The notes under the pieces: model-generated
What the model saw: only the letters and a program-made list of their open reading frames with translations
Database searches by the model: none
Told to the model about the DNA's origin: nothing
In this document: piece after piece, positions 1,436 to 8,849 of the stretch
Numbering within the stretch: the stretch's first letter is position 1
How the letters are laid out: the number at the start of each line of letters is the position of its first letter
Origin: Actinomycetota bacterium
GTDB lineage: Bacteria; Actinomycetota; Acidimicrobiia; Acidimicrobiales; Acidimicrobiaceae
Direction: 5' to 3'
Length of the DNA stretch: 9,992 nucleotides
Assembly: GCA_004366215.1 (NCBI GenBank)
Contig: SIRY01000055.1
Coordinates: forward strand, 1-9,992
Made by a program: the position numbers and the translations under genes

Positions 1436-3427
1436 GTGAGCGACTCGGCAGCTACGGGTGTCCGTGGCAAGTCAGCGCGGGCGGCGGCGCTCCGTGCGCG
1501 GCAGCAACGGTCGGCACCGACGCGCAGAGTTCCTGAGCGTCGTCGTGAGGCGACGCAGCAGCCGCTGGGGAGCACCTCCGGCGTCGGCGGTTCGCGTGGC
1601 GAGGGGGCGTCGTGTGGGTGTGGGCACGCAGAGGCCGCCCGGGTAGTCGACTCGTCCGCTGCGACGAGCTTCTCGGCTCGTGCTGATGTCCAAGGCGCTC
1701 GTGGGGCAGAGGCGGTGCTCACGAGCGCGCCGGCCGGCGCTCGGACGTCGGGGCTCGAGGTGAGCCCTGCCCTCGGTTACGTGTCGATACGGGAGGCCAT
1801 TCGCGGCCTCCGCGGTCGGGAGGCCGCGCAGCGGCGGCGACAGCTCCTCTGCGTGCAGGGGCGGGGCGACGAGGCTGCGTGTCGGCCGACCGGGCGGCAG
1901 CGCATCGGGGTTGCCAAGGTGGGCCTTGGGACGACGGCAGCGGGCAACCCGGTGACGGGGACTCAGGTCGGTTCGACCCCGGCGATGACGGGTCTCGAGG
2001 CCGGCTCGTGTCACGACGTGACGGGCACCGAGTACCTCGACGCCGCGGAGGTGCGCTCGCAGTGCGACGCTTGGCCGGTCGCCGGGCCCGCCAAAGTCGC
2101 CGTGGGCCGGACGGCAAGCGGTCACTGGGTGACCGGGACGTCGGTCGCGGCCGGCCCTCGCGTAACCGGCGTAGAGCCCGGTGTGTGTCAGCGGGTCACG
2201 GGCACCGAGTACCTCGACGTCGCGGAGGTGGTGACGGCGTGCGGCACGACGCCGGAGGCCGCCCCTGCGAAGGTGACGGTGAGCGCGACCGAGGCTGGGT
2301 TGCGGGTCTCGGGCGCAGACGTCGACCGCCCGAGTCGAGTGACGGGGGACGAGGTGGGCCGGGCTCGCCGCATCACAGGGTCCCAGTACCAGCATCCAGA
2401 GTGGGTGCGCCCCGAAGGTCGTTCAGGCTCATCGGTGCCCCACAAGGTCTCGGTGATGAGCACGCCGCTCGGTCGCACCGTGACCGGCACGACCGTGGCA
2501 CGCTCTCCGGTCGTCACCGGCACCGAGCGCGGTGAGTGCGTCGACGTGACCGGCATCGCCTACGAGGACAGCCTCGCGCGCTACCAAGCGTGCCTGCGGC
2601 CATCGCCACCGACGGCCGAGAAGGTCCAGGAGATGCGCACGTGGCGGGGCCAGCGCGTGACGGGCGCGAGCGTCGAGCACGCGGCGGCAGTCACGGGGGA
2701 CGAGCAGGGACTCTGTGAGGACGTGACCGGCACTCCCTACGTCGGACCAGACACCTACGCAGCGTTCTGTGAGACCGACGGACGCCAGCCACGGGCGAGT
2801 TGGGGACCGGCGGGTGTGCCATCCATCTCAGGCACTCGCCTCAGTGGCGACGGGCGGGTCACGGGTGAGGCTCAGGAGCCCCAGGCTCGGGTGAGCGGAA
2901 CGCCCTACCGCGACGTCGATCACGAGTCAGAGGGAGTCGGGGTCCTCGGTGGGCCGCGAGGTGGCTTTAGCGTGGTGTCGCCTGCACAGGCGGCGCGCCG
3001 ACGACGGACTCGCGTGACCGGCACCGGCCACCGCGAAGGAGGGCCACGCATCACAGGCCCGCTCGACCTCGCTGTCGGGCTGGTCTCTGGCACTCCAGAG
3101 TTCCGCTACACGAGTGAGGACGAGCCGCAGGCAGCGCAGCCCCGGCGGTGGTCGGCGAGCGACGCGGTGACGGGCGAGGGCAAGGTTGCCGGCGCGGTGA
3201 TCACAGGCGATGCGTGGGACCGTCATCCGGGGATCACCGGCACCGAGGGCGTGTCGACGCGGCGCAATCCGACCTTGCGGGGTGTTGCGCAGGCGCCGGT
3301 GCCCCCACGCCGTTCTCGGCCGTCGGCGCCAGACGCTGAGCCGCCAGCGAGTACGCGCGTGACGGGCAGCGCAGGAGGGGTTAGCGAGGGGCCCGTCGTG
3401 ACCTTCTCAGGGGGGTCTCGCGGGTGA
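1436..3427 (+). CDS. csoS2: Carboxysome assembly scaffold protein CsoS2
   Basis: Intrinsically disordered scaffold that links Rubisco (through its N-domain) to the shell (through its middle and C-terminal domains). The GTG start has AAGGGAG at 1422-1428 with a 7-nt spacer. The protein has 663 residues, shorter than the ~870 of Halothiobacillus. Residues 1-158 are Arg/Ala-rich with one clear N-repeat (127-154, GREAAQRRRQLLCVQGRGDEAACRPTGR). Residues ~160-447 hold five M-repeats of ~59 residues, each with V/I-T/S-G triplets. Residues ~450-663 form the C-domain, containing RITGP (538-542), GTPEFRY (552-558) and RNPTLRG (610-616) and ending in the conserved shell peptide TFSGGSRG. Four M-repeats carry a Cys pair spaced 18 residues apart (192/210, 251/269, 368/386, 427/445); M3 has none. 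I saw no convincing slippery heptamer for the frameshift that gives a short CsoS2A isoform in other species, but this was not an exhaustive scan. Confidence 0.96.
   Translation: MSDSAATGVRGKSARAAALRARQQRSAPTRRVPERRREATQQPLGSTSGVGGSRGEGASCGCGHAEAARVVDSSAATSFSARADVQGARGAEAVLTSAPAGARTSGLEVSPALGYVSIREAIRGLRGREAAQRRRQLLCVQGRGDEAACRPTGRQRIGVAKVGLGTTAAGNPVTGTQVGSTPAMTGLEAGSCHDVTGTEYLDAAEVRSQCDAWPVAGPAKVAVGRTASGHWVTGTSVAAGPRVTGVEPGVCQRVTGTEYLDVAEVVTACGTTPEAAPAKVTVSATEAGLRVSGADVDRPSRVTGDEVGRARRITGSQYQHPEWVRPEGRSGSSVPHKVSVMSTPLGRTVTGTTVARSPVVTGTERGECVDVTGIAYEDSLARYQACLRPSPPTAEKVQEMRTWRGQRVTGASVEHAAAVTGDEQGLCEDVTGTPYVGPDTYAAFCETDGRQPRASWGPAGVPSISGTRLSGDGRVTGEAQEPQARVSGTPYRDVDHESEGVGVLGGPRGGFSVVSPAQAARRRRTRVTGTGHREGGPRITGPLDLAVGLVSGTPEFRYTSEDEPQAAQPRRWSASDAVTGEGKVAGAVITGDAWDRHPGITGTEGVSTRRNPTLRGVAQAPVPPRRSRPSAPDAEPPASTRVTGSAGGVSEGPVVTFSGGSRG
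1916..2776 (+). repeat. Five CsoS2 M-repeats (coding tandem repeat)
   Basis: Five tandem coding units, period 58-59 codons, begin at KVGLG (residue 161), KVAVG (220), KVTVS (279), KVSVM (337) and KVQEM (396). Each has three spaced VTG/ITG/VSG motifs and a terminal Y-x(n)-C segment, except that M3 has Ala310 and Gly328 where the others have Cys. These repeats are known to contact the shell and curve it. M5 (MRTWRGQRVTGASVEHAAAV) most resembles the last M-repeat of Halothiobacillus CsoS2 as I remember it. Confidence 0.9.
2021..2053 (+). repeat. Near-exact DNA direct repeat in M1 (partner 2198-2230)
   Basis: The 33 bases 2021-2053 recur at 2198-2230 with a single change (C at 2043, T at 2220). 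The offset is 177 nt, exactly 59 codons or one M-repeat. It encodes TGTEYLD(A/V)AEV. M1 and M2 are thus nearly identical here while the other repeats have diverged, suggesting recent duplication or gene conversion between them. Confidence 0.9.
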
Positions 3428-3440
3428 GTGCCCAGTTCCA

Positions 3441-3446
3441 GGAGGT
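3441..3446 (+). promoter_or_regulatory. Ribosome binding site deciding the csoSCA start
   Basis: GGAGGT lies upstream of two consecutive GTG codons (3453 and 3456). Spacing is 6 nt to the first and 9 nt to the second. Both are usable; the protein family favours the second (see csoSCA). Confidence 0.75.
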
Positions 3447-3455
3447 CCTCTCGTG

Positions 3456-5000
3456 GTGAACACGCGCAATCGGCGGGGCCGGCACCCGGCGGCGCCGACG
3501 CCGACGCGAGCGCCGTGGGGACTTGGTACGCCTCAGGGGCGGCGTCGGCGCGAGCCGCTGACGGAGCCCGCCGAGGTGGCCCGGCCAAGCGGGCACGGGC
3601 GGTGGTCGCATCCGCTGAGTAGCCGCGAGCAGAACGCGCGGCTCGACCAGTTTGAGCGCTCGTTGCGGGCGAGGTTCGAGGCGGTCATCCCCACCCTGCG
3701 CGAGGTCGCAGGGCTGCGCTGGAGCGAGCACTTCGCGGCGGAGGCCTCCTCGCTCATCGAGCAACGGCTCGGCGTCGAGGCACCGCGGGAGCTCTTCGAC
3801 CAGGCCTGGATCGCCCCGCTCGACATGCGCCAGCTGTTCGGCGTCGTACTCGGTGGTGTGATTCGTCAGGTCGCTCAGGATGTGCACCGTGCGGGGGAGC
3901 TCATCGGCTCGGACTTGACGAGCTTCTTCCTCGAGTGCGGCTACCACGCCGTCGACATCTCTCCCTGCTCTGATGGTCGACTCAAGGGTGTGATCCGCGC
4001 GATCCTGCGTCTGCCCGACGAGGCCGTTCGAAGTCGCAAGGCTTACGCCGGAGCGATGTTCGACGTCGAAGCGAGCGTCCGACGCTGGGTGGAGACGGAG
4101 CTCATGCGCTTCCGTGAGGGCTGCCCGGTCCCACCCGAGGCAGGCACGCGCTACCTCAAGGTTGCGGTGTACCACTGGAGTCGCTCGGACCCCGAGCACG
4201 AGGGGTGCGCTGCGCACGGGTCGGATCGTGAGCGGGCTGCGGCCGGGGCGCTGCGCCGGTTGCGCGAGTTTCGTGAGGCGGTCGAGAACAGCTTCTACTG
4301 CGGGGCTTCCGTCGACATCCTCCTCATCGGGGTCGACACAGACGCTGATGCGATTCGGGTGCACGTCCCCGACGCCGAGGGCGACCTTACCCTCGACCGC
4401 TTCGTCGACAACCACGACCTCTACGAAGCGACACGCTTCCTCGACGCGACCCGCGCGCGGCTCGCGATCTACGAGGCGATCGAGGCGGCGTCTGGGACGG
4501 CCTCGCGACCACACGAGGGAATGCGCCGGCTCATCGCGACCCTGCTCATCAACAACCTCTCCCAGATCGATCGCGTCTACGAGACGTGGCAGGGCCGCTA
4601 CCCCGACGTCGGTCACAACGAGACTTTCATCTCGGTCGGAGATGGGTTCGAGGAGTTCCAGCTTCGCAACTTGGCCTACTTCGTCTACCTGCAAACCGTC
4701 GAAGAGGCTGGGCACGACCTCGACGTCGGGATCGAGATCTTCCGCCGGCTCAACGTGCGACGGGGTCTTCCGATCCCCATCGCGATCCACTTTCGTTACG
4801 ACCGGCGGGTGCCTGGGAGTCGAGAGCGAGCCACTGAGCGGTGCCAGAGAGTTCGCCGGGCCATCGAGGATCGGTACCGTGCGCTCTTCGAGGACGGCTA
4901 CGTGGTCTGCGACATGAGCATCCAGGATCGCGAGACCGGCAGCCCTATCGAAGCCGTCTCCGTCCACGAGCTCAGCCGTGGACACGGAGGTGGTTCGTGA
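3456..5000 (+). CDS. csoSCA: Carboxysome shell carbonic anhydrase CsoSCA (epsilon class)
   Basis: Zinc carbonic anhydrase that turns bicarbonate into CO2 inside the carboxysome. The protein has 514 residues from GTG 3456, or 515 from GTG 3453. I chose 3456 because it gives an MNTRN N-terminus, as in the Halothiobacillus protein. Zinc ligands and active site are intact: PCSDGR gives C171, D173 and R175, and HWSRSDPEHEGC gives H240 and C251. Each is exactly two residues below the Halothiobacillus positions (C173, D175, R177, H242, C253). Residues 1-50 are basic, Pro-rich and probably disordered; in the family this tail tethers the enzyme to Rubisco. It is followed by the helical, catalytic and C-terminal defunct duplicate domains. 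There is a 28-nt gap after csoS2, and the stop overlaps the csoS4 start by 3 nt (GTGA). Confidence 0.97.
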   Translation: MNTRNRRGRHPAAPTPTRAPWGLGTPQGRRRREPLTEPAEVARPSGHGRWSHPLSSREQNARLDQFERSLRARFEAVIPTLREVAGLRWSEHFAAEASSLIEQRLGVEAPRELFDQAWIAPLDMRQLFGVVLGGVIRQVAQDVHRAGELIGSDLTSFFLECGYHAVDISPCSDGRLKGVIRAILRLPDEAVRSRKAYAGAMFDVEASVRRWVETELMRFREGCPVPPEAGTRYLKVAVYHWSRSDPEHEGCAAHGSDRERAAAGALRRLREFREAVENSFYCGASVDILLIGVDTDADAIRVHVPDAEGDLTLDRFVDNHDLYEATRFLDATRARLAIYEAIEAASGTASRPHEGMRRLIATLLINNLSQIDRVYETWQGRYPDVGHNETFISVGDGFEEFQLRNLAYFVYLQTVEEAGHDLDVGIEIFRRLNVRRGLPIPIAIHFRYDRRVPGSRERATERCQRVRRAIEDRYRALFEDGYVVCDMSIQDRETGSPIEAVSVHELSRGHGGGS

Positions 5001-5248
5001 AGATCTACCAGGTCGAGCGGACGCTGTGGTCGACGAACCGCATTCCACAGCTCAAGAACCTGCCTCTCCTCGTCGTCAAAGAGCGCGGCGGTGCTCGCAG
5101 TGTGGCGGTGGACGCGGTGGGGTGCGTCCCAGGTGACTGGGTGATCTGCGTCAGCGGCTCGGGGAGCCGAGCCGCCACGGGTGACAAGGACTACCCGACC
5201 GACCTCACCATCGTCGGCATCATCGACGTGTGGGAAGAGGACGGTTAG
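4997..5248 (+). CDS. csoS4A: Carboxysome vertex pentamer protein, CsoS4A/B-like
   Basis: Bacterial microcompartment vertex protein (EutN/CcmL family) whose pentamers cap the shell corners. The protein has 83 residues, the usual length. The GTG start overlaps the csoSCA stop (GTGA), with GGAGG at 4986-4990 and a 6-nt spacer. The N-terminus MKIYQVERTLWSTNRI and the AVDAVGCVPGDWVICV segment match CsoS4A. The IPQLKN stretch (16-21) and SGSGSR loop (53-58) look more like CsoS4B. The C-terminal DLTIVGIIDVW motif is common to both. No second csoS4 gene is present in the window, although most cso operons carry the A and B paralogs side by side. I assign csoS4A by position and N-terminus. Confidence 0.95.
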   Translation: MKIYQVERTLWSTNRIPQLKNLPLLVVKERGGARSVAVDAVGCVPGDWVICVSGSGSRAATGDKDYPTDLTIVGIIDVWEEDG

Positions 5249-5267
5249 GTGCCCCACCGGGGTCGGC

Positions 5268-5282
5268 GCGGCGCATCGCCGC
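5268..5282 (+). promoter_or_regulatory. Hairpin upstream of csoS1
   Basis: GCGGCG (5268-5273) and CGCCGC (5277-5282) form a perfect 6-bp stem with a CAT loop. A smaller CCCC/GGGG stem (5252-5262) lies just before it. Both sit in the 72-nt gap between csoS4 and csoS1, a long gap for this operon. csoS1 product is needed in large excess over the vertex protein. This placement suits an RNA processing or stabilising element; there is no U-tract for termination. Confidence 0.5.
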
Positions 5283-5320
5283 AGGCGAGGACCAGTGAGT
5301 GACAACGGAGGAGATGGGAC

Positions 5321-5641
5321 ATGGCACAGGGAGTGACCGGCATCGCCCTCGGCATGATCGAGACGCGGGGCCTGGTACCAGCGATCGAGGCAGCTGACGC
5401 GATGACGAAGGCGGCCGAGGTGCGCCTCGTGGGTCGGCAGTTCGTCGGCGGTGGGTACGTCACGGTGATGGTCCGTGGCGAGACTGGTGCCGTGAACGCG
5501 GCGGTCCGGGCGGGAGCGGACGCGTGCGAGCGTGTCGGAGACGGGCTCGTCGCAGCGCACATCATCGCTCGGGTCCACAGCGAGGTCGAGAAGATCCTGC
5601 CGGAGTCTCCTGAACGAGATCCAGCGACCGTCCGGAGTTGA
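5321..5641 (+). CDS. csoS1: Carboxysome major shell protein CsoS1 (BMC-H hexamer)
   Basis: Forms the hexameric tiles of the shell facets; the central pore lets metabolites through. The protein has 106 residues. It is nearly identical to CsoS1A/C as I remember them: [20 protein letters not shown] at the start, the pore loop FVGGG at residues 41-45, and a conserved C-terminal helix ending near EKILP. It extends about 8 residues beyond the usual 98 ([11 protein letters not shown] tail). The ATG start has GGAGG at 5307-5311. It is the only hexamer gene in the window, whereas many cso operons carry two or three csoS1 copies. The TGA stop lies 5 nt before the GTG start of the next gene. Confidence 0.98.
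5634..5637 (+). promoter_or_regulatory. Ribosome binding site deciding the ferritin-like gene start
   Basis: GGAG at 5634-5637 gives a 9-nt spacer to GTG 5647. It touches the alternative TTG at 5638 with no spacer, which makes the TTG an unlikely start. Confidence 0.65.
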
Positions 5642-5646
5642 GGCTT

Positions 5647-6105
5647 GTGTCAGCTCGAGACCCTCGTCTCGTCGGGTACCTCCAGCGGGCACTGCGGGCT
5701 GAGATCACTGCGATCACGCTCTACCTCTCGCAGGCACACGAAGCGCTCGAGTGGGGCCTGCCTGAGCTGCACGCGCGCCTCCTCCAGGACGCACGTGACG
5801 AGCTTGAGCACGAGCGACGCATCGTGGCACACCTCGTCCACGAGGGGATCGCCGTCCGCGCCCTCGACCTGCCACCGCTGCGGCGAGCTCGCTCCCCCGA
5901 GGAGCTCGCCGCACTGAGTCGGACCTTCGAAGCTGAGGTGGTGGAGCTCTACGACGATGCGGCCGAGTACTGCAGGCGTTTTGGACACCGTGAGGCGGCT
6001 GAGCTCTTTGAGGCACTCCTCGACGATGAGCGCCAACACCTCGCCTCCGTGGTGGAGCTCGGCGGCGCGATCCGAGCGCAAAGCGGCGGTGGGAGTCGTG
6101 GCTGA
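5647..6105 (+). CDS. Carboxysome-associated bacterioferritin-like protein
   Basis: Four-helix-bundle ferritin-like protein; a homolog sits at this place in many cso operons, but its role in the carboxysome is unsettled. The protein has 152 residues from GTG 5647. Di-iron ligand candidates are E19 (RAEITAI), E52 with H55 (DELEHER, ExxH), E95/E97 on the third helix, and E128 with H131 (DDERQHL, ExxH), so both ExxH halves of the ferroxidase site are present. There is no internal methionine at all, so the Met-haem ligand of classical bacterioferritin is absent and haem binding by that route is ruled out. The last ~10 residues are Gly/Ser-rich. The 3' end overlaps the acRAF start by 8 nt. Confidence 0.85.
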   Translation: MSARDPRLVGYLQRALRAEITAITLYLSQAHEALEWGLPELHARLLQDARDELEHERRIVAHLVHEGIAVRALDLPPLRRARSPEELAALSRTFEAEVVELYDDAAEYCRRFGHREAAELFEALLDDERQHLASVVELGGAIRAQSGGGSRG

Positions 6106-6361
6106 GCCAGCTGGAGGAAGGACGCAGTCGCCGAGGAGCTGGCGCTTTGAGTTTCCAGCCTACGAGGACCTGCGTCGCTTCCTCGACGCGCTTGCTGCTG
6201 AGTGCGAGCACGTTGGCTTCTACCCCAACATCAGCTTCCACCGGCGAGACGCGACCGTGACGCTCGAGAGGACGAGCGACGATGGTGCGAGCGAAGCGCT
6301 CGTCGCGTGGCTCGACGCGTGGCGGGCGCGCGCAGGTCGGTCCGACACGAAGGAGGCCTGA
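6098..6361 (+). CDS. Carboxysomal Rubisco assembly factor, PCD-like (acRAF)
   Basis: Small protein of the pterin-4a-carbinolamine dehydratase fold; the cso-operon members act as Rubisco assembly chaperones, not as dehydratases. The protein has 87 residues from GTG 6098. The fold signature is visible: WRFEFPAYEDLRRFLDALAAECEHVGFYPNISF, then a short strand and a C-terminal helix. The HHP catalytic motif of true dehydratases reads GFYP here (40-43), fitting loss of that activity. The start is uncertain: GTG 6098 has a GGGAG only 2 nt away, and GTG 6089 in the same frame would add three residues. It overlaps the ferritin-like gene upstream, and its TGA shares one base with the next ATG (TGATG). 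Confidence 0.88.
   Translation: MAEPAGGRTQSPRSWRFEFPAYEDLRRFLDALAAECEHVGFYPNISFHRRDATVTLERTSDDGASEALVAWLDAWRARAGRSDTKEA
6350..6356 (+). promoter_or_regulatory. Strong ribosome binding site for the small ORF at 6361
   Basis: AAGGAGG ends 4 nt before ATG 6361. It is among the best Shine-Dalgarno matches in the window and supports translation of the unassigned ORF. Confidence 0.75.
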
Positions 6362-6606
6362 TGCACGAGAACGACGATCGAGCAGATGAGCTCGACGCAC
6401 CGGTGGTCGGCGACGAGGAGCCCGGCGCGGCGGCACAGACCCCACCGTCTCCACAGCGCCGTCGCCAGCGGCGCCCGAGCGCGCCGGCGCAGGAGTCGCC
6501 CCAGCCTGAGCCCGCGCGCGCTGACCGCGCGGGCGGGACCCCAGAGCCGCCAGCGCACCCCGCGCCGTTGCGTCGGCACAGCGCTCGGCGCGTGTGGCCG
6601 GACTAG
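6361..6606 (+). CDS. Small disordered Pro/Arg-rich protein with C-terminal Trp; McdB-like candidate
   Basis: I do not recognise this 81-residue protein by direct similarity. It is clearly a gene: an ATG coupled to the acRAF stop (TGATG), a strong AAGGAGG, and a stop followed 15 nt later by cbbQ. The first 20 residues are acidic (9 D/E). The middle is Pro-rich (16 Pro overall) with an RRRQRR cluster at 33-38. The C-terminus is basic (RRHSARR, 71-77). There is no Cys, Phe, Tyr or Ile, so the chain should be disordered. The only aromatic is W79, third from the end. McdB proteins, which position carboxysomes with the ParA-like McdA, are disordered, poorly conserved and marked by a C-terminal Trp, and are often encoded in cso operons. 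McdB is therefore my lead hypothesis; no mcdA is visible. An unrelated disordered accessory factor is the alternative. Confidence 0.8.
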   Translation: MHENDDRADELDAPVVGDEEPGAAAQTPPSPQRRRQRRPSAPAQESPQPEPARADRAGGTPEPPAHPAPLRRHSARRVWPD

Positions 6607-6621
6607 GAGAGGACACGATCG

Positions 6622-7428
6622 ATGGTCATGACCGAGGTGGAGCAGTACCTCCTCACAGAGGAGCCGTACTACCGACCGGTCGGCAACGAAGTCGAGCTCT
6701 TTGAAGCGGCCTACGAGGCTCGCATGCCACTCATCCTCAAGGGTCCGACGGGGTCAGGCAAGACTCGGTTCGTCGAGTACATGGCCTGGCGCCTTGGCAA
6801 GGCGCTCATCACCGTCGCGTGCAACGAGGACATGACCGCCTCGGACCTCGTGGGGCGTTTCCTCCTCGACGCGGCGGGGACGCGGTGGCAAGACGGACCG
6901 CTCACGACGGCGGCGCGCTACGGGGCGATCTGCTACCTCGACGAGGTCGTCGAGGCACGCCAAGACACGACGGTGGTGATCCACGCCCTCACCGACGCAC
7001 GTCGCATGCTCCCGCTCGATCGCAAGGGAGAGCTCGTGCGGGCACACCCAGACTTCTTGCTCGTGCTCTCCTACAACCCTGGGTACCAGAGCGTGCTCAA
7101 GGACCTCAAGCAGTCTACGAAGCAGCGCTTTGGTGCGCTCGACTTTACGTACCCCGACCACGACGTCGAAGTCGAGATCGTTGCCCACGAGAGCGGCGTC
7201 GACGCGGCGACGGCTGACCGACTCGTCGCGATCGCCGCTCGAGCGCGGAACCTCAAAGGCCACGGGCTCGACGAAGGCATCTCGACGCGCATGCTGATCC
7301 ACGCGGCGCGTCTCGTCGTCCGGGGCGTCGACCCGACGACCGCCTGCCAGGTCGCGCTCGTCGCTCCGATCACCGACGACCCGGACATGCGCGACGCGCT
7401 CAAGGCAGCGGTCGCTGCCTCGTTCTAG
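6622..7428 (+). CDS. cbbQ: Rubisco activase motor subunit CbbQ (MoxR-type AAA+ ATPase)
   Basis: Hexameric AAA+ ATPase that, with CbbO, remodels inhibited Rubisco to release sugar phosphates. The protein has 268 residues, normal length. Domains in order: Walker A GPTGSGKT (41-48), Walker B ICYLDEV (103-109, D107/E108), sensor 1 Asn in LSYNPGY (N152), arginine finger region STKQRF (R169), sensor 2 region GISTRML (R223), and the C-terminal helical lid. All ATPase motifs are intact. The start is ATG 6622; ATG 6628 in the same frame is possible. AGGAGAGG at 6605-6612 overlaps the stop of the small ORF and serves as ribosome binding site. It is followed after 32 nt by its partner cbbO. Confidence 0.97.
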
Positions 7429-7460: not shown

Positions 7461-8849
7461 ATGACGGTCGACCTTGAGGCCTACCGAGGCCTCGTGAGCG
7501 ATCTCGGCGACCAGGCAGAGCACGTCCTGCGAGCCGCGTGGAGCGAGGCGGTGCAGAGCTTTGGGCCGGCTGCGCTCGAGGTGACGTACCTCGGCGGCGC
7601 ACGGACCTTGGCGCGGTTGGGACGCACGAGTGCGCTTCCCGTCGCGTTCCTCCAGCACGCACCCGCTGTGGCGCGAGAGGTGGGCGACGCGTGCGTCGAG
7701 GCTCTCGTCGAAGCTGCGGTGCGCTTCTCCTCGAAGACGAGTCAAGCGGTGATCGAGAGGCTCATCGAGGTTGCTCCGATCGCGGCTACGCGGCTCGCGG
7801 ACTGCGACCTGTTTCGTGAGTTCTTATCGCTCATCGATGAGCTGCTCGGTCTGGCACCGCGCGGCGTGCGTCCCCTGCTCGACCGCCTCGAGGTGCTCCT
7901 GCGCGAGCTCACGGTGCGCGGCTTGCGGCGCTGGGCGCTGTGGGGGGCGAGGGCACACGCGTTCGACTTCGATGCCCAGGTTCGCTACTTCTCGCTCGAG
8001 GCTCAAGAAGCGCTCAGCATGTTGCAGCGGGAGCGAGTCGGCACGCTCCTCGTGGACGTGCAGCGCCGGCTCCTCATGTACCTGCGTGCGCTGTGGGGAC
8101 GCGACTTTCTCCTGCGCCCCCAAGGGCGTGACCTCGAGACCGGCGAGCAGGCCCGCCCACACCTCGAGGGGATCACGATCGCGGTCGCCGACGCGTACGA
8201 CGACTGGCACGCCACGGTCGACGGCGAGGATCGAGTCGCACGAGGACTCGAGCTCTACCGAGCTGCGGTTGCGCACGCGGCTGCGCACGCGGTCTTGTCG
8301 CGCGAGCGCTTCGTGGGCGTCGATCGACCTGCTGCTGAGCGTGCGCTCGTCGGCCTCGTAGAGGACGCCCGAATCGAGCACGCCGCGCGCAGCCGTTTCC
8401 CCGGCTTCGCTCGCCTGTGGGGTCAGTTCCACGTCGTCAGCGCTCGAGCCGGCGAGGACCCCGCGGCGCTCATGGCGCGACTCGCGAGGAGCTTGGCCGA
8501 GCCTTCCTACGCTGATCCTCACCCCTGGGTGCAGGCGGCTCGGTCGGTGGTCGAGCAGCGCGTCCTCGGTCGTGATGAGGACGTCGCTGCTGCAGTCGAC
8601 GCGGCGGTCGCCGAGCTCGTCGAGCTCGCGAGGTCGTACGGCGTGGCGCTCGAGGGTGCCGAGGCGCTCACGTGGCAGCCGATCTACCGCGATGACAACG
8701 CCTTCCTCTTCGTCGAGGAGGCGCACGCCGGTGTCGCAGACAGCGCCGTCGACGTCCGCCCACAGCAGCAGCGTCGGACGGTCAACGTCATGGAGATGGT
8801 CAACGCGGTCGACGTGCCGAACGCGGGTGACGACGCCGATGAGATCTGA
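7461..8849 (+). CDS. cbbO: Rubisco activase adaptor CbbO, N-terminal part (split gene)
   Basis: CbbO is the adaptor that sits on the CbbQ hexamer and recruits Rubisco. This ORF encodes 462 residues of its helical N-terminal region and linker and stops at TGA 8847-8849. The very next codon is ATG in the same reading frame, and the remainder of CbbO continues from it (8850-9818). Together the pieces give about 785 codons, close to intact CbbO. Visible features: a Leu/Arg-rich helical region (about 1-200), an RGLELYRAAVAHAAAH block similar to NorD/CbbO proteins, and the NVMEMVNAVDVPNAG linker before the stop. The ATG 7461 has only a weak GAGGG about 16 nt upstream, and no other in-frame start was seen, so translation may be coupled to cbbQ. 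Confidence 0.9.
   Translation: MTVDLEAYRGLVSDLGDQAEHVLRAAWSEAVQSFGPAALEVTYLGGARTLARLGRTSALPVAFLQHAPAVAREVGDACVEALVEAAVRFSSKTSQAVIERLIEVAPIAATRLADCDLFREFLSLIDELLGLAPRGVRPLLDRLEVLLRELTVRGLRRWALWGARAHAFDFDAQVRYFSLEAQEALSMLQRERVGTLLVDVQRRLLMYLRALWGRDFLLRPQGRDLETGEQARPHLEGITIAVADAYDDWHATVDGEDRVARGLELYRAAVAHAAAHAVLSRERFVGVDRPAAERALVGLVEDARIEHAARSRFPGFARLWGQFHVVSARAGEDPAALMARLARSLAEPSYADPHPWVQAARSVVEQRVLGRDEDVAAAVDAAVAELVELARSYGVALEGAEALTWQPIYRDDNAFLFVEEAHAGVADSAVDVRPQQQRRTVNVMEMVNAVDVPNAGDDADEI

What the first reader, a model, noticed from the sequence alone, without database searches (positions are those of the whole stretch)
6361..6606. Unassigned 81-residue disordered protein with a sole, C-terminal Trp: candidate orphan McdB
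Seen: strong Shine-Dalgarno, coupling to acRAF, position before cbbQ, acidic N-terminus, Pro/Arg-rich middle, no Cys/Phe/Tyr/Ile, W79 three residues from the end. Established knowledge: McdB carboxysome-positioning proteins are disordered, diverge fast, are encoded near cso genes and keep a C-terminal Trp used for carboxysome association. Inference: this is a minimal McdB-like adaptor. No ParA-type mcdA is in the window, so it may act alone or with a distant ParA.
Basis: partly seen in the sequence, partly recalled or inferred. Interest (0 to 1): 0.72.

Follow-up and report, generated by a model that had tools for sequence, protein, structure and literature searches.

The report
Carboxysome adaptor McdB without its motor
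A bacterium's carboxysome gene cluster carries a small McdB-type adaptor gene that keeps the tail motif known to dock on this carbon-fixing organelle, while the neighbouring motor gene that its closest relatives have in that spot is gone, so the adaptor likely does its job without that motor.

Summary
The ORF at 6361-6606 is real and is an alpha-McdB by motif, position and synteny. It ends in RRVWPD, which fits the published alpha-McdB consensus R(V/I)WPD; the matching DNA motif occurs once in the 1.36 Mb assembly, here. The three genomes of its family in which I found a cso locus (one of the same genus) carry acRAF-mcdA-mcdB-cbbQ, with McdBs ending AVWPD or RVWPD. The window lacks mcdA in that slot, and its McdB lacks the N-terminal basic helix that binds McdA in Halothiobacillus. 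A CsoSCA tree pairs the window with the same-genus, mcdA-bearing genome (100/100), so loss on this branch is the simplest history. No McdA was found elsewhere, but the genome is only 72% complete. Four more genomes of the same phylum (96-98% complete) also have acRAF-McdB without mcdA; their best McdA-profile matches are 37-47.5 bits against 284-323 for true McdAs. Their McdB type has 420 database hits; all 120 listed end in VWPD. Orphan McdBs are already known in proteobacteria and cyanobacteria. New here, as far as the searches go, are loss of motor and motor-binding helix together within a genus, and a widespread, probably actinobacterial orphan type. McdA-independent function is inferred, not shown.

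The parts
6098..6361 (+). acRAF (Rubisco assembly factor-like, 87 aa, GTG start), upstream coupled gene
   Evidence: tblastn match to the acRAF slot of L112-L114; reading frame; no Pfam hit. The name acRAF is taken from the finding and recalled knowledge.
6350..6356 (+). Shine-Dalgarno AAGGAGG, 4 nt before the ATG
   Evidence: sequence
6361..6606 (+). orphan alpha-McdB, 81 aa, ATG overlapping the acRAF stop (TGATG)
6361..6420 (+). acidic N-terminus (residues 1-20, net -8) where McdA-bearing relatives have a helix-like segment with basic residues
6457..6474 (+). arginine patch RRRQRR in the disordered linker
   Evidence: sequence
6589..6603 (+). C-terminal RVWPD, the alpha-McdB carboxysome-docking motif
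   Evidence: consensus from PMC11321042 section 6
6361..6361 (.). point at which mcdA lies in the relatives (L112, L113, L114) and is absent here
6622..7428 (+). cbbQ, downstream neighbour
   Evidence: 79% identical in the same-genus genome; name recalled
7461..8849 (+). cbbO
   Evidence: name recalled
1436..5641 (+). cso genes: csoS2 (1436-3427), csoSCA (3453-5000), a single csoS4 (about 4997-5248), a single csoS1 (5321-5641)
   Evidence: Pfam PF12288, PF20686, PF03319, PF00936

Best explanation
By motif, position and synteny this 81-residue ORF is an alpha-McdB that keeps the C-terminal RVWPD carboxysome-docking motif but has neither mcdA beside it nor the N-terminal segment predicted to form the McdA-binding helix in its relatives, and it likely acts on carboxysomes without an McdA motor. 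Shown by calls: the RVWPD end, the slot, the missing neighbour and the missing helix-forming sequence. Inferred: the ancestor had acRAF-mcdA-mcdB-cbbQ, and mcdA and the helix were lost on the window's branch. Inferred: RVWPD would anchor the disordered, Pro/Arg-rich and acidic chain to the carboxysome surface, as the last 10 residues do in Halothiobacillus. Inferred: the chain would then work passively, as a steric or condensate-forming coat that keeps carboxysomes from clumping or helps their assembly, rather than as a ParA-driven cargo adaptor.
For: Motif: the ORF ends RRVWPD; alpha-McdB consensus R(V/I)WPD with invariant WPD and length range 51-169 aa (PMC11321042 section 6); the last 10 residues of Hn McdB suffice for carboxysome binding (PMC11321042 section 9). 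Synteny: the three family genomes where I found a cso locus (G001, G006, G008) have acRAF-mcdA-mcdB-cbbQ; 12 of 13 proteobacterial cso loci among 80 cbbQ loci have mcdA-mcdB. Loss: a 14-row McdA profile scores 284-323 bits in those three genomes but at most 21.7 bits in the window's genome. Tree: window plus the same-genus genome 100/100, inside a four-row family clade (96/93) whose other three rows come from mcdA-bearing genomes. Helix: predicted at residues 3-28 in the same-genus McdB, none in the window's; in Hn the first 20 residues are necessary and sufficient for McdA binding (PMC12204374 passages). Parallel: 4 genomes of the same phylum, 96-98% complete, have acRAF-McdB without mcdA and best McdA-profile matches of 37-47.5 bits; their McdB type has 420 hits (queries included), 120 of 120 listed ending VWPD.
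Against: The window's genome is 71.9% complete in 201 contigs, so a distant mcdAB could be missed; proteobacterial 'type 2' orphans do coexist with a distant mcdAB (PMC8262871 passages). The word-based protein search with this ORF found only itself among 8 candidates, so the orphan form is seen once. Selection is not demonstrated: dN/dS about 0.57 against the same-genus copy on a saturated, uncertain alignment, and 0.59-1.03 within the other orphan group (ratios of the values printed), so most of the chain may be under little constraint. The other orphan group has a basic N-terminus (MTPAKRR), unlike the acidic one here, so the two may not work alike. L078 keeps the McdA-binding N-terminal motif although its mcdA is a remnant, so loss of the two need not go together.
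Confidence: 0.6

Rival explanations
1. A distant McdA or the chromosomal ParA, encoded in the unassembled 28% of the genome, still drives it: the proteobacterial 'type 2' arrangement, in which a second, helix-bearing McdB talks to McdA and this one only decorates the carboxysome.
For: Published precedent for orphan cso-operon McdBs with a distant mcdAB (PMC8262871 passages). The genome is incomplete, and even the ParA-like protein (Soj-like by recall) found near C1:2151594 of the same-genus genome has no counterpart in it.
Against: The same-genus, one-contig genome has its only strong McdA match inside the cso locus and one [VI]WPD-stop site. The four near-complete orphan genomes have no McdA match above 47.5 bits. 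The window's N-terminus is acidic, with no predicted helix.
Confidence: 0.2
2. A decaying relic: after mcdA was lost, mcdB is no longer needed and is drifting, with the C-terminal motif surviving by recency.
For: N-terminal helix segment gone; dN/dS not clearly below 1; in L078 mcdA is reduced to a short remnant while mcdB remains, showing that such decay happens.
Against: The ORF is open, has a strong SD, overlaps the acRAF stop and keeps an intact RVWPD, although CsoSCA of the same operon has diverged to 65% identity from the same-genus copy. The other orphan group keeps VWPD in 120 of 120 listed proteins, though that list is the best-scoring part of 420.
Confidence: 0.15
3. Assembly or binning artefact: mcdA was dropped by a mis-join of a GC-rich region.
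For: The genome is a fragmented draft (201 contigs).
Against: The junction is a clean, coupled TGATG with its own SD, and the N-terminal helix segment is missing as well, which a simple drop of mcdA would not cause.
Confidence: 0.04

Closest known systems
alpha-McdB type 1 (Halothiobacillus neapolitanus McdB and relatives)
   Same: C-terminal R(V/I)WPD, sole Trp, disorder, size, place in or near the cso operon
   Different: No mcdA upstream, and no N-terminal basic helix that binds McdA
alpha-McdB type 2 (orphan McdB in proteobacterial cso operons; PMC8262871, passages read)
   Same: In the cso operon, without neighbouring mcdA, lacking the basic N-terminus
   Different: No distant type-1 mcdAB found (genome incomplete); the N-terminus is strongly acidic rather than uncharged; by synteny it arose in situ in a genus whose other member has the type-1 pair. 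The 2026 review PMC12918739 (passages) words type 2 differently, as a McdB away from the cso locus.
MTPAKRR-type orphan McdB of the same phylum (found here: L138, L139, L140, L195)
   Same: acRAF-McdB without mcdA, VWPD end, disordered linker
   Different: Conserved basic N-terminus; in L138-L140 followed by a NUDIX-like gene rather than cbbQ (Pfam run on L138 only); separate CsoSCA clade
L078 proteobacterial cso locus (MAG WH2.bin26)
   Same: McdB between acRAF and cbbQ with no full-length mcdA; no strong McdA match elsewhere in its genome (best 43 bits)
   Different: Keeps the N-terminal McdA-binding motif and a short mcdA remnant

Membership tests
alpha-McdB | C-terminal R(V/I)WPD with invariant WPD | tested here: met
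   ends RRVWPD; consensus
alpha-McdB | short (51-169 aa), disordered, low hydrophobicity, biased composition | tested here: met
   81 aa; 9% order-promoting residues; charge-hydropathy value -0.245; no secondary structure in the model
alpha-McdB | encoded in or near a cso operon | tested here: met
   csoS2, csoSCA, csoS4, csoS1 upstream, cbbQ downstream
alpha-McdB | binds alpha-carboxysomes through the Trp | not testable with these tools
   needs microscopy
alpha-McdB type 1 | mcdA directly upstream | tested here: not met
   acRAF stop overlaps the ORF start; best tblastn of 14 McdAs against 6091-6700 is E 0.023, on the reverse strand
alpha-McdB type 1 | basic N-terminal helix for McdA binding | tested here: not met
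   net -8 in residues 1-20, no helix predicted; relatives have the L..KL.Q.V.QV-like segment
alpha-McdB type 2 | in the cso operon without mcdA and without the charged N-terminus | tested here: inconclusive
   no mcdA and no basic N-terminus, but the N-terminus is strongly acidic
alpha-McdB type 2 | type-1 mcdAB elsewhere in the genome | tested here: inconclusive
   none found, genome 71.9% complete

The most novel reading that the evidence does not exclude
Actinobacteria hold a motor-free class of McdB that manages carboxysomes with no ParA-type ATPase: a shell-anchored disordered chain that keeps carboxysomes apart, or tethers them to the nucleoid through its own basic patches. The window catches a lineage switching from the motor-driven to the motor-free mode by losing mcdA and the motor-binding helix together.
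Probability: 0.35. Interest if true: 0.72.

Novelty: new variant of a known kind. Interest (0 to 1): 0.5.

Why it matters
What McdB does without McdA is an open question in print (PMC8406218 and PMC8262871, passages read). The orphans named there are proteobacterial or cyanobacterial, and the proteobacterial type 2 is described in genomes with an mcdAB elsewhere, which confounds tests. Here two genomes of one genus differ by the presence or absence of mcdA plus the McdA-binding helix at the cso locus, and four near-complete genomes of the same phylum carry McdB with no strong McdA match. That offers a natural separation of function: what still needs the WPD tail once the motor is gone.

Tried and rejected
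Considered and rejected: a random GC-rich ORF (motif, slot and SD argue against it); a hidden mcdA remnant in the window (best tblastn of all 14 McdA rows against 6091-6700 is E 0.023, 23 residues on the reverse strand; on the narrower 6330-6640 it is 0.008, same strand; the best forward match is 17 residues at E 0.061 and 0.024; the L078 remnant gives 6e-9). Pfam and NCBIfam cannot test membership: 0 hits for the window McdB, and also 0 for the same-genus and L138 McdBs.

Led nowhere: protein search with the window ORF alone found only itself among 8 candidates; with the family alignment it found 4 proteins, namely the three relatives or near-copies of them, plus itself. The MacCready 2021 primary paper on alpha-McdAB is not held, so types 1 and 2 are taken from passages of the review PMC8262871. 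dN/dS is uninformative for the window copy. G820 (81% complete) has a cso contig that ends before the acRAF slot, so it was not counted.

Control results to tell: the [VI]WPD DNA motif is not unique in every genome. G008 has 9 hits and G006 has 2; the backward control has 1 in G006, 3 in G374, 1 in G649 and 2 in G792. Read in frame, six G008 hits are copies of one short piece (frames of 8-21 aa), and two further true-stop frames (116 aa in G008, 57 aa in G006) lie away from the cso locus and were not studied.

Rows dropped or partial: L090 McdA was left out of the 14-row profile as a near copy of L080 (14 of 15 used). L038 shows a RVWPD ORF before cbbQ but is cut at the contig end and was not counted among the 13 cso loci. 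Family genomes with cbbQ-like matches of only 56-59% identity were not counted as cso carriers; L006 and L007, the two looked at, show no cso gene in 3.2-3.8 kb. The orphan-family profile used 3 of the 4 sequences, because L195 was found later. 120 of 420 hits were listed and examined. The [VI]WPD pattern was not run on G824. The two structure predictions used different alignments (4 and 7 rows; the second contains the window too).

Full report
OBSERVATION. It has no Cys, Phe, Tyr or Ile and one Trp, W79. The first 20 residues carry 9 acidic and 1 basic residue.

WHAT IT IS. Published alpha-McdBs share an invariant WPD and the consensus R(V/I)WPD, at lengths of 51-169 residues (PMC11321042, section 6 read). 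In the window 1 of 170 stop-bounded ORFs of 30 residues or more ends in [VI]WPD, against about 4e-6 expected per ORF end. In the whole 1.36 Mb assembly the DNA motif RTNTGGCCNGAYTRR occurs once, at this ORF, and the backward control 0 times; some other genomes have further hits and control hits, which on reading are mostly short frames.

WHOSE GENOME. G001, same genus, has one contig of 2,158,157 bases, the length given for the Acidimicrobium ferrooxidans type strain, of an actinobacterial family (PMC3035218, passages), a species reported to carry alpha-carboxysome genes (PMC4499774, passages). I infer from this that the window is from a second Acidimicrobium species and that 'same phylum' means Actinobacteria.

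RELATIVES AT THE SAME LOCUS. G001 (99% complete), G006 and G008 (same family) have acRAF, then a ParA-type ATPase, then a small ORF ending AVWPD, AVWPD and RVWPD, then cbbQ. The ATPase of G001 matches NCBIfam 'ParA family partition ATPase' at 158 bits, below that model's cut-off of 180, and Pfam AAA_31 above its cut-off. Among 80 cbbQ loci from named genomes, 13, all proteobacterial by title, have cso genes upstream of cbbQ. All 13 have a WPD-ending ORF and 12 of 13 have the ATPase before it. The exception, L078, keeps the McdB with its N-terminal motif but only a short mcdA remnant (tblastn 6e-9), and no strong McdA match elsewhere in its genome.

WHAT IS MISSING IN THE WINDOW. mcdA is absent between acRAF and McdB, and no McdA similarity beyond chance level is left in the interval (best of 14 McdAs E 0.023 for 6091-6700 and 0.008 for 6330-6640, both on the reverse strand). 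A 14-row McdA profile gives 284-323 bits in G001, G006 and G008 but at most 21.7 bits (a protein I read as Mrp/ApbC-type, sequence) in the window's genome. That genome is 71.9% complete, so absence from it is not proven. The McdB is altered too: relatives start with a helix-like segment with basic residues (LGSKLAQEVQKVQ and the like), which the window lacks. AlphaFold2 predicts a helix at residues 3-28 of the G001 McdB (mean pLDDT 78 and 90 in the first two ten-residue blocks) and no secondary structure for the window protein (mean pLDDT 64.8); the two alignments differed. In H. [quoted passage not shown]

WHEN IT WAS LOST. In a CsoSCA tree of 15 rows the window pairs with G001 (100/100) inside a four-row clade with G006 and G008 (96/93), next to Acidithiobacillus L041 and the remnant-bearing L078 (six rows, 99/99). 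Of these six, four have a full mcdA, L078 has a remnant, and the window has none. Loss on the window's own branch is the simplest history. This is inference.

A SECOND GROUP OF ORPHANS. Searches with the CsoS2 model gave G270 and G374 (class search, 5 of 395 genomes with a match), G649 (phylum search, 3 of 396), G824 (family of G374, 2 of 6) and G820 (class of G649, 2 of 66). In the first four, acRAF is followed directly by a WPD-ending ORF with no mcdA (L138, L139, L140, L195); the G820 contig ends before that slot. In L138 a NUDIX/thiamine-phosphate-synthase-like gene and Proton_antipo_M and DabA-type genes follow; L139 and L140 look alike by reading, and the downstream side of L195 was not examined beyond showing no cbbQ match. 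These four genomes are 96-98% complete; their best McdA-profile matches are 42.7, 47.5, 37.2 and 46 bits, and in the three scanned for the DNA motif the only hit with a true stop codon is the cso-locus ORF. A profile of three of these McdBs finds 420 proteins at E<=0.01, the queries included; all 120 listed end in VWPD and 100 of 120 begin MTPA. The list is the best-scoring part, so it favours conserved ends. In the CsoSCA tree the four form their own clade (100/100), so the two kinds of orphan probably arose separately.

SELECTION. Ratios of the printed dN and dS are 0.59-1.03 in the second group and 0.57 for window against G001 on a saturated alignment. This is no evidence of strong constraint on the whole chain; the conservation that is visible lies in the terminal motif and, in the second group, the N-terminus.

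MECHANISM. Shown by others: the last ten residues of H. neapolitanus McdB suffice for carboxysome binding (PMC11321042 section 9), and in Synechococcus McdB is suggested to have a role beyond McdA (PMC8406218, passage read). Inferred here: the window's McdB would dock by RVWPD, is unlikely to engage McdA because the N-terminal helix is missing, and so most likely acts as a passive surface coat or condensate former.

KNOWN OR NEW. Orphan alpha-McdBs are in print as type 2 in proteobacterial cso operons, with mcdAB elsewhere (PMC8262871, passages read); a 2026 review words it as a McdB away from the cso locus (PMC12918739, passages). Numerous orphans in cyanobacteria and proteobacteria are mentioned (PMC8406218). 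Paper searches for McdB or McdA with orphan, actinobacteria, Acidimicrobium or Acidimicrobiia, or for ParA with Acidimicrobium ferrooxidans, gave no title or abstract on actinobacterial McdB (searches listed in full; one search listed 20 of 61; one search listed 20 of 471). One 2018 paper says that mcdA/B-like genes often lie near alpha-carboxysome operons and names actinobacteria among carboxysome hosts (PMC6328274, passage). The primary alpha-McdAB paper is not held, so its lists were not checked, and actinobacterial McdBs may be in them.

Noticed in passing
window 4997-5641: The operon has a single csoS4 and a single csoS1 between csoSCA and the ferritin-like gene, whereas the same-genus locus L112 has one csoS4 and three csoS1, and L113 has two csoS4; a minimal shell gene set at this locus. 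Copies elsewhere in the genome were not searched.
   Followed up: partly
L078:5540-5940: A proteobacterial MAG has an mcdA reduced to a short remnant beside an intact-looking mcdB that keeps its N-terminal motif: an apparent intermediate of mcdA loss.
   Followed up: partly
L138, L139, L140, L195: cso operons of the window's phylum carry a conserved MTPAKRR-type protein ending VWPD after acRAF; in L138 a NUDIX/ThiE-like gene and DabA-type genes follow where cbbQ/cbbO stand in the window.
   Followed up: partly
window 5638-6105: A ferritin/bacterioferritin-like gene lies between csoS1 and acRAF and, as listed, overlaps both; it matches Pfam Ferritin at 2e-13.
   Followed up: no
L196 (G820): A genome of another family of the phylum carries a cso locus whose CsoSCA groups with Nitrosomonas (100/100), suggesting a separate transfer; the contig ends before the McdB slot.
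   Followed up: no
G008, loci L175, L184-L187, L189: One short sequence ending GTATGGCCAGATTGA is repeated at six places of the G008 genome, several at contig ends, as a mobile element would be; the frames are 8-21 aa and are not McdBs.
   Followed up: no
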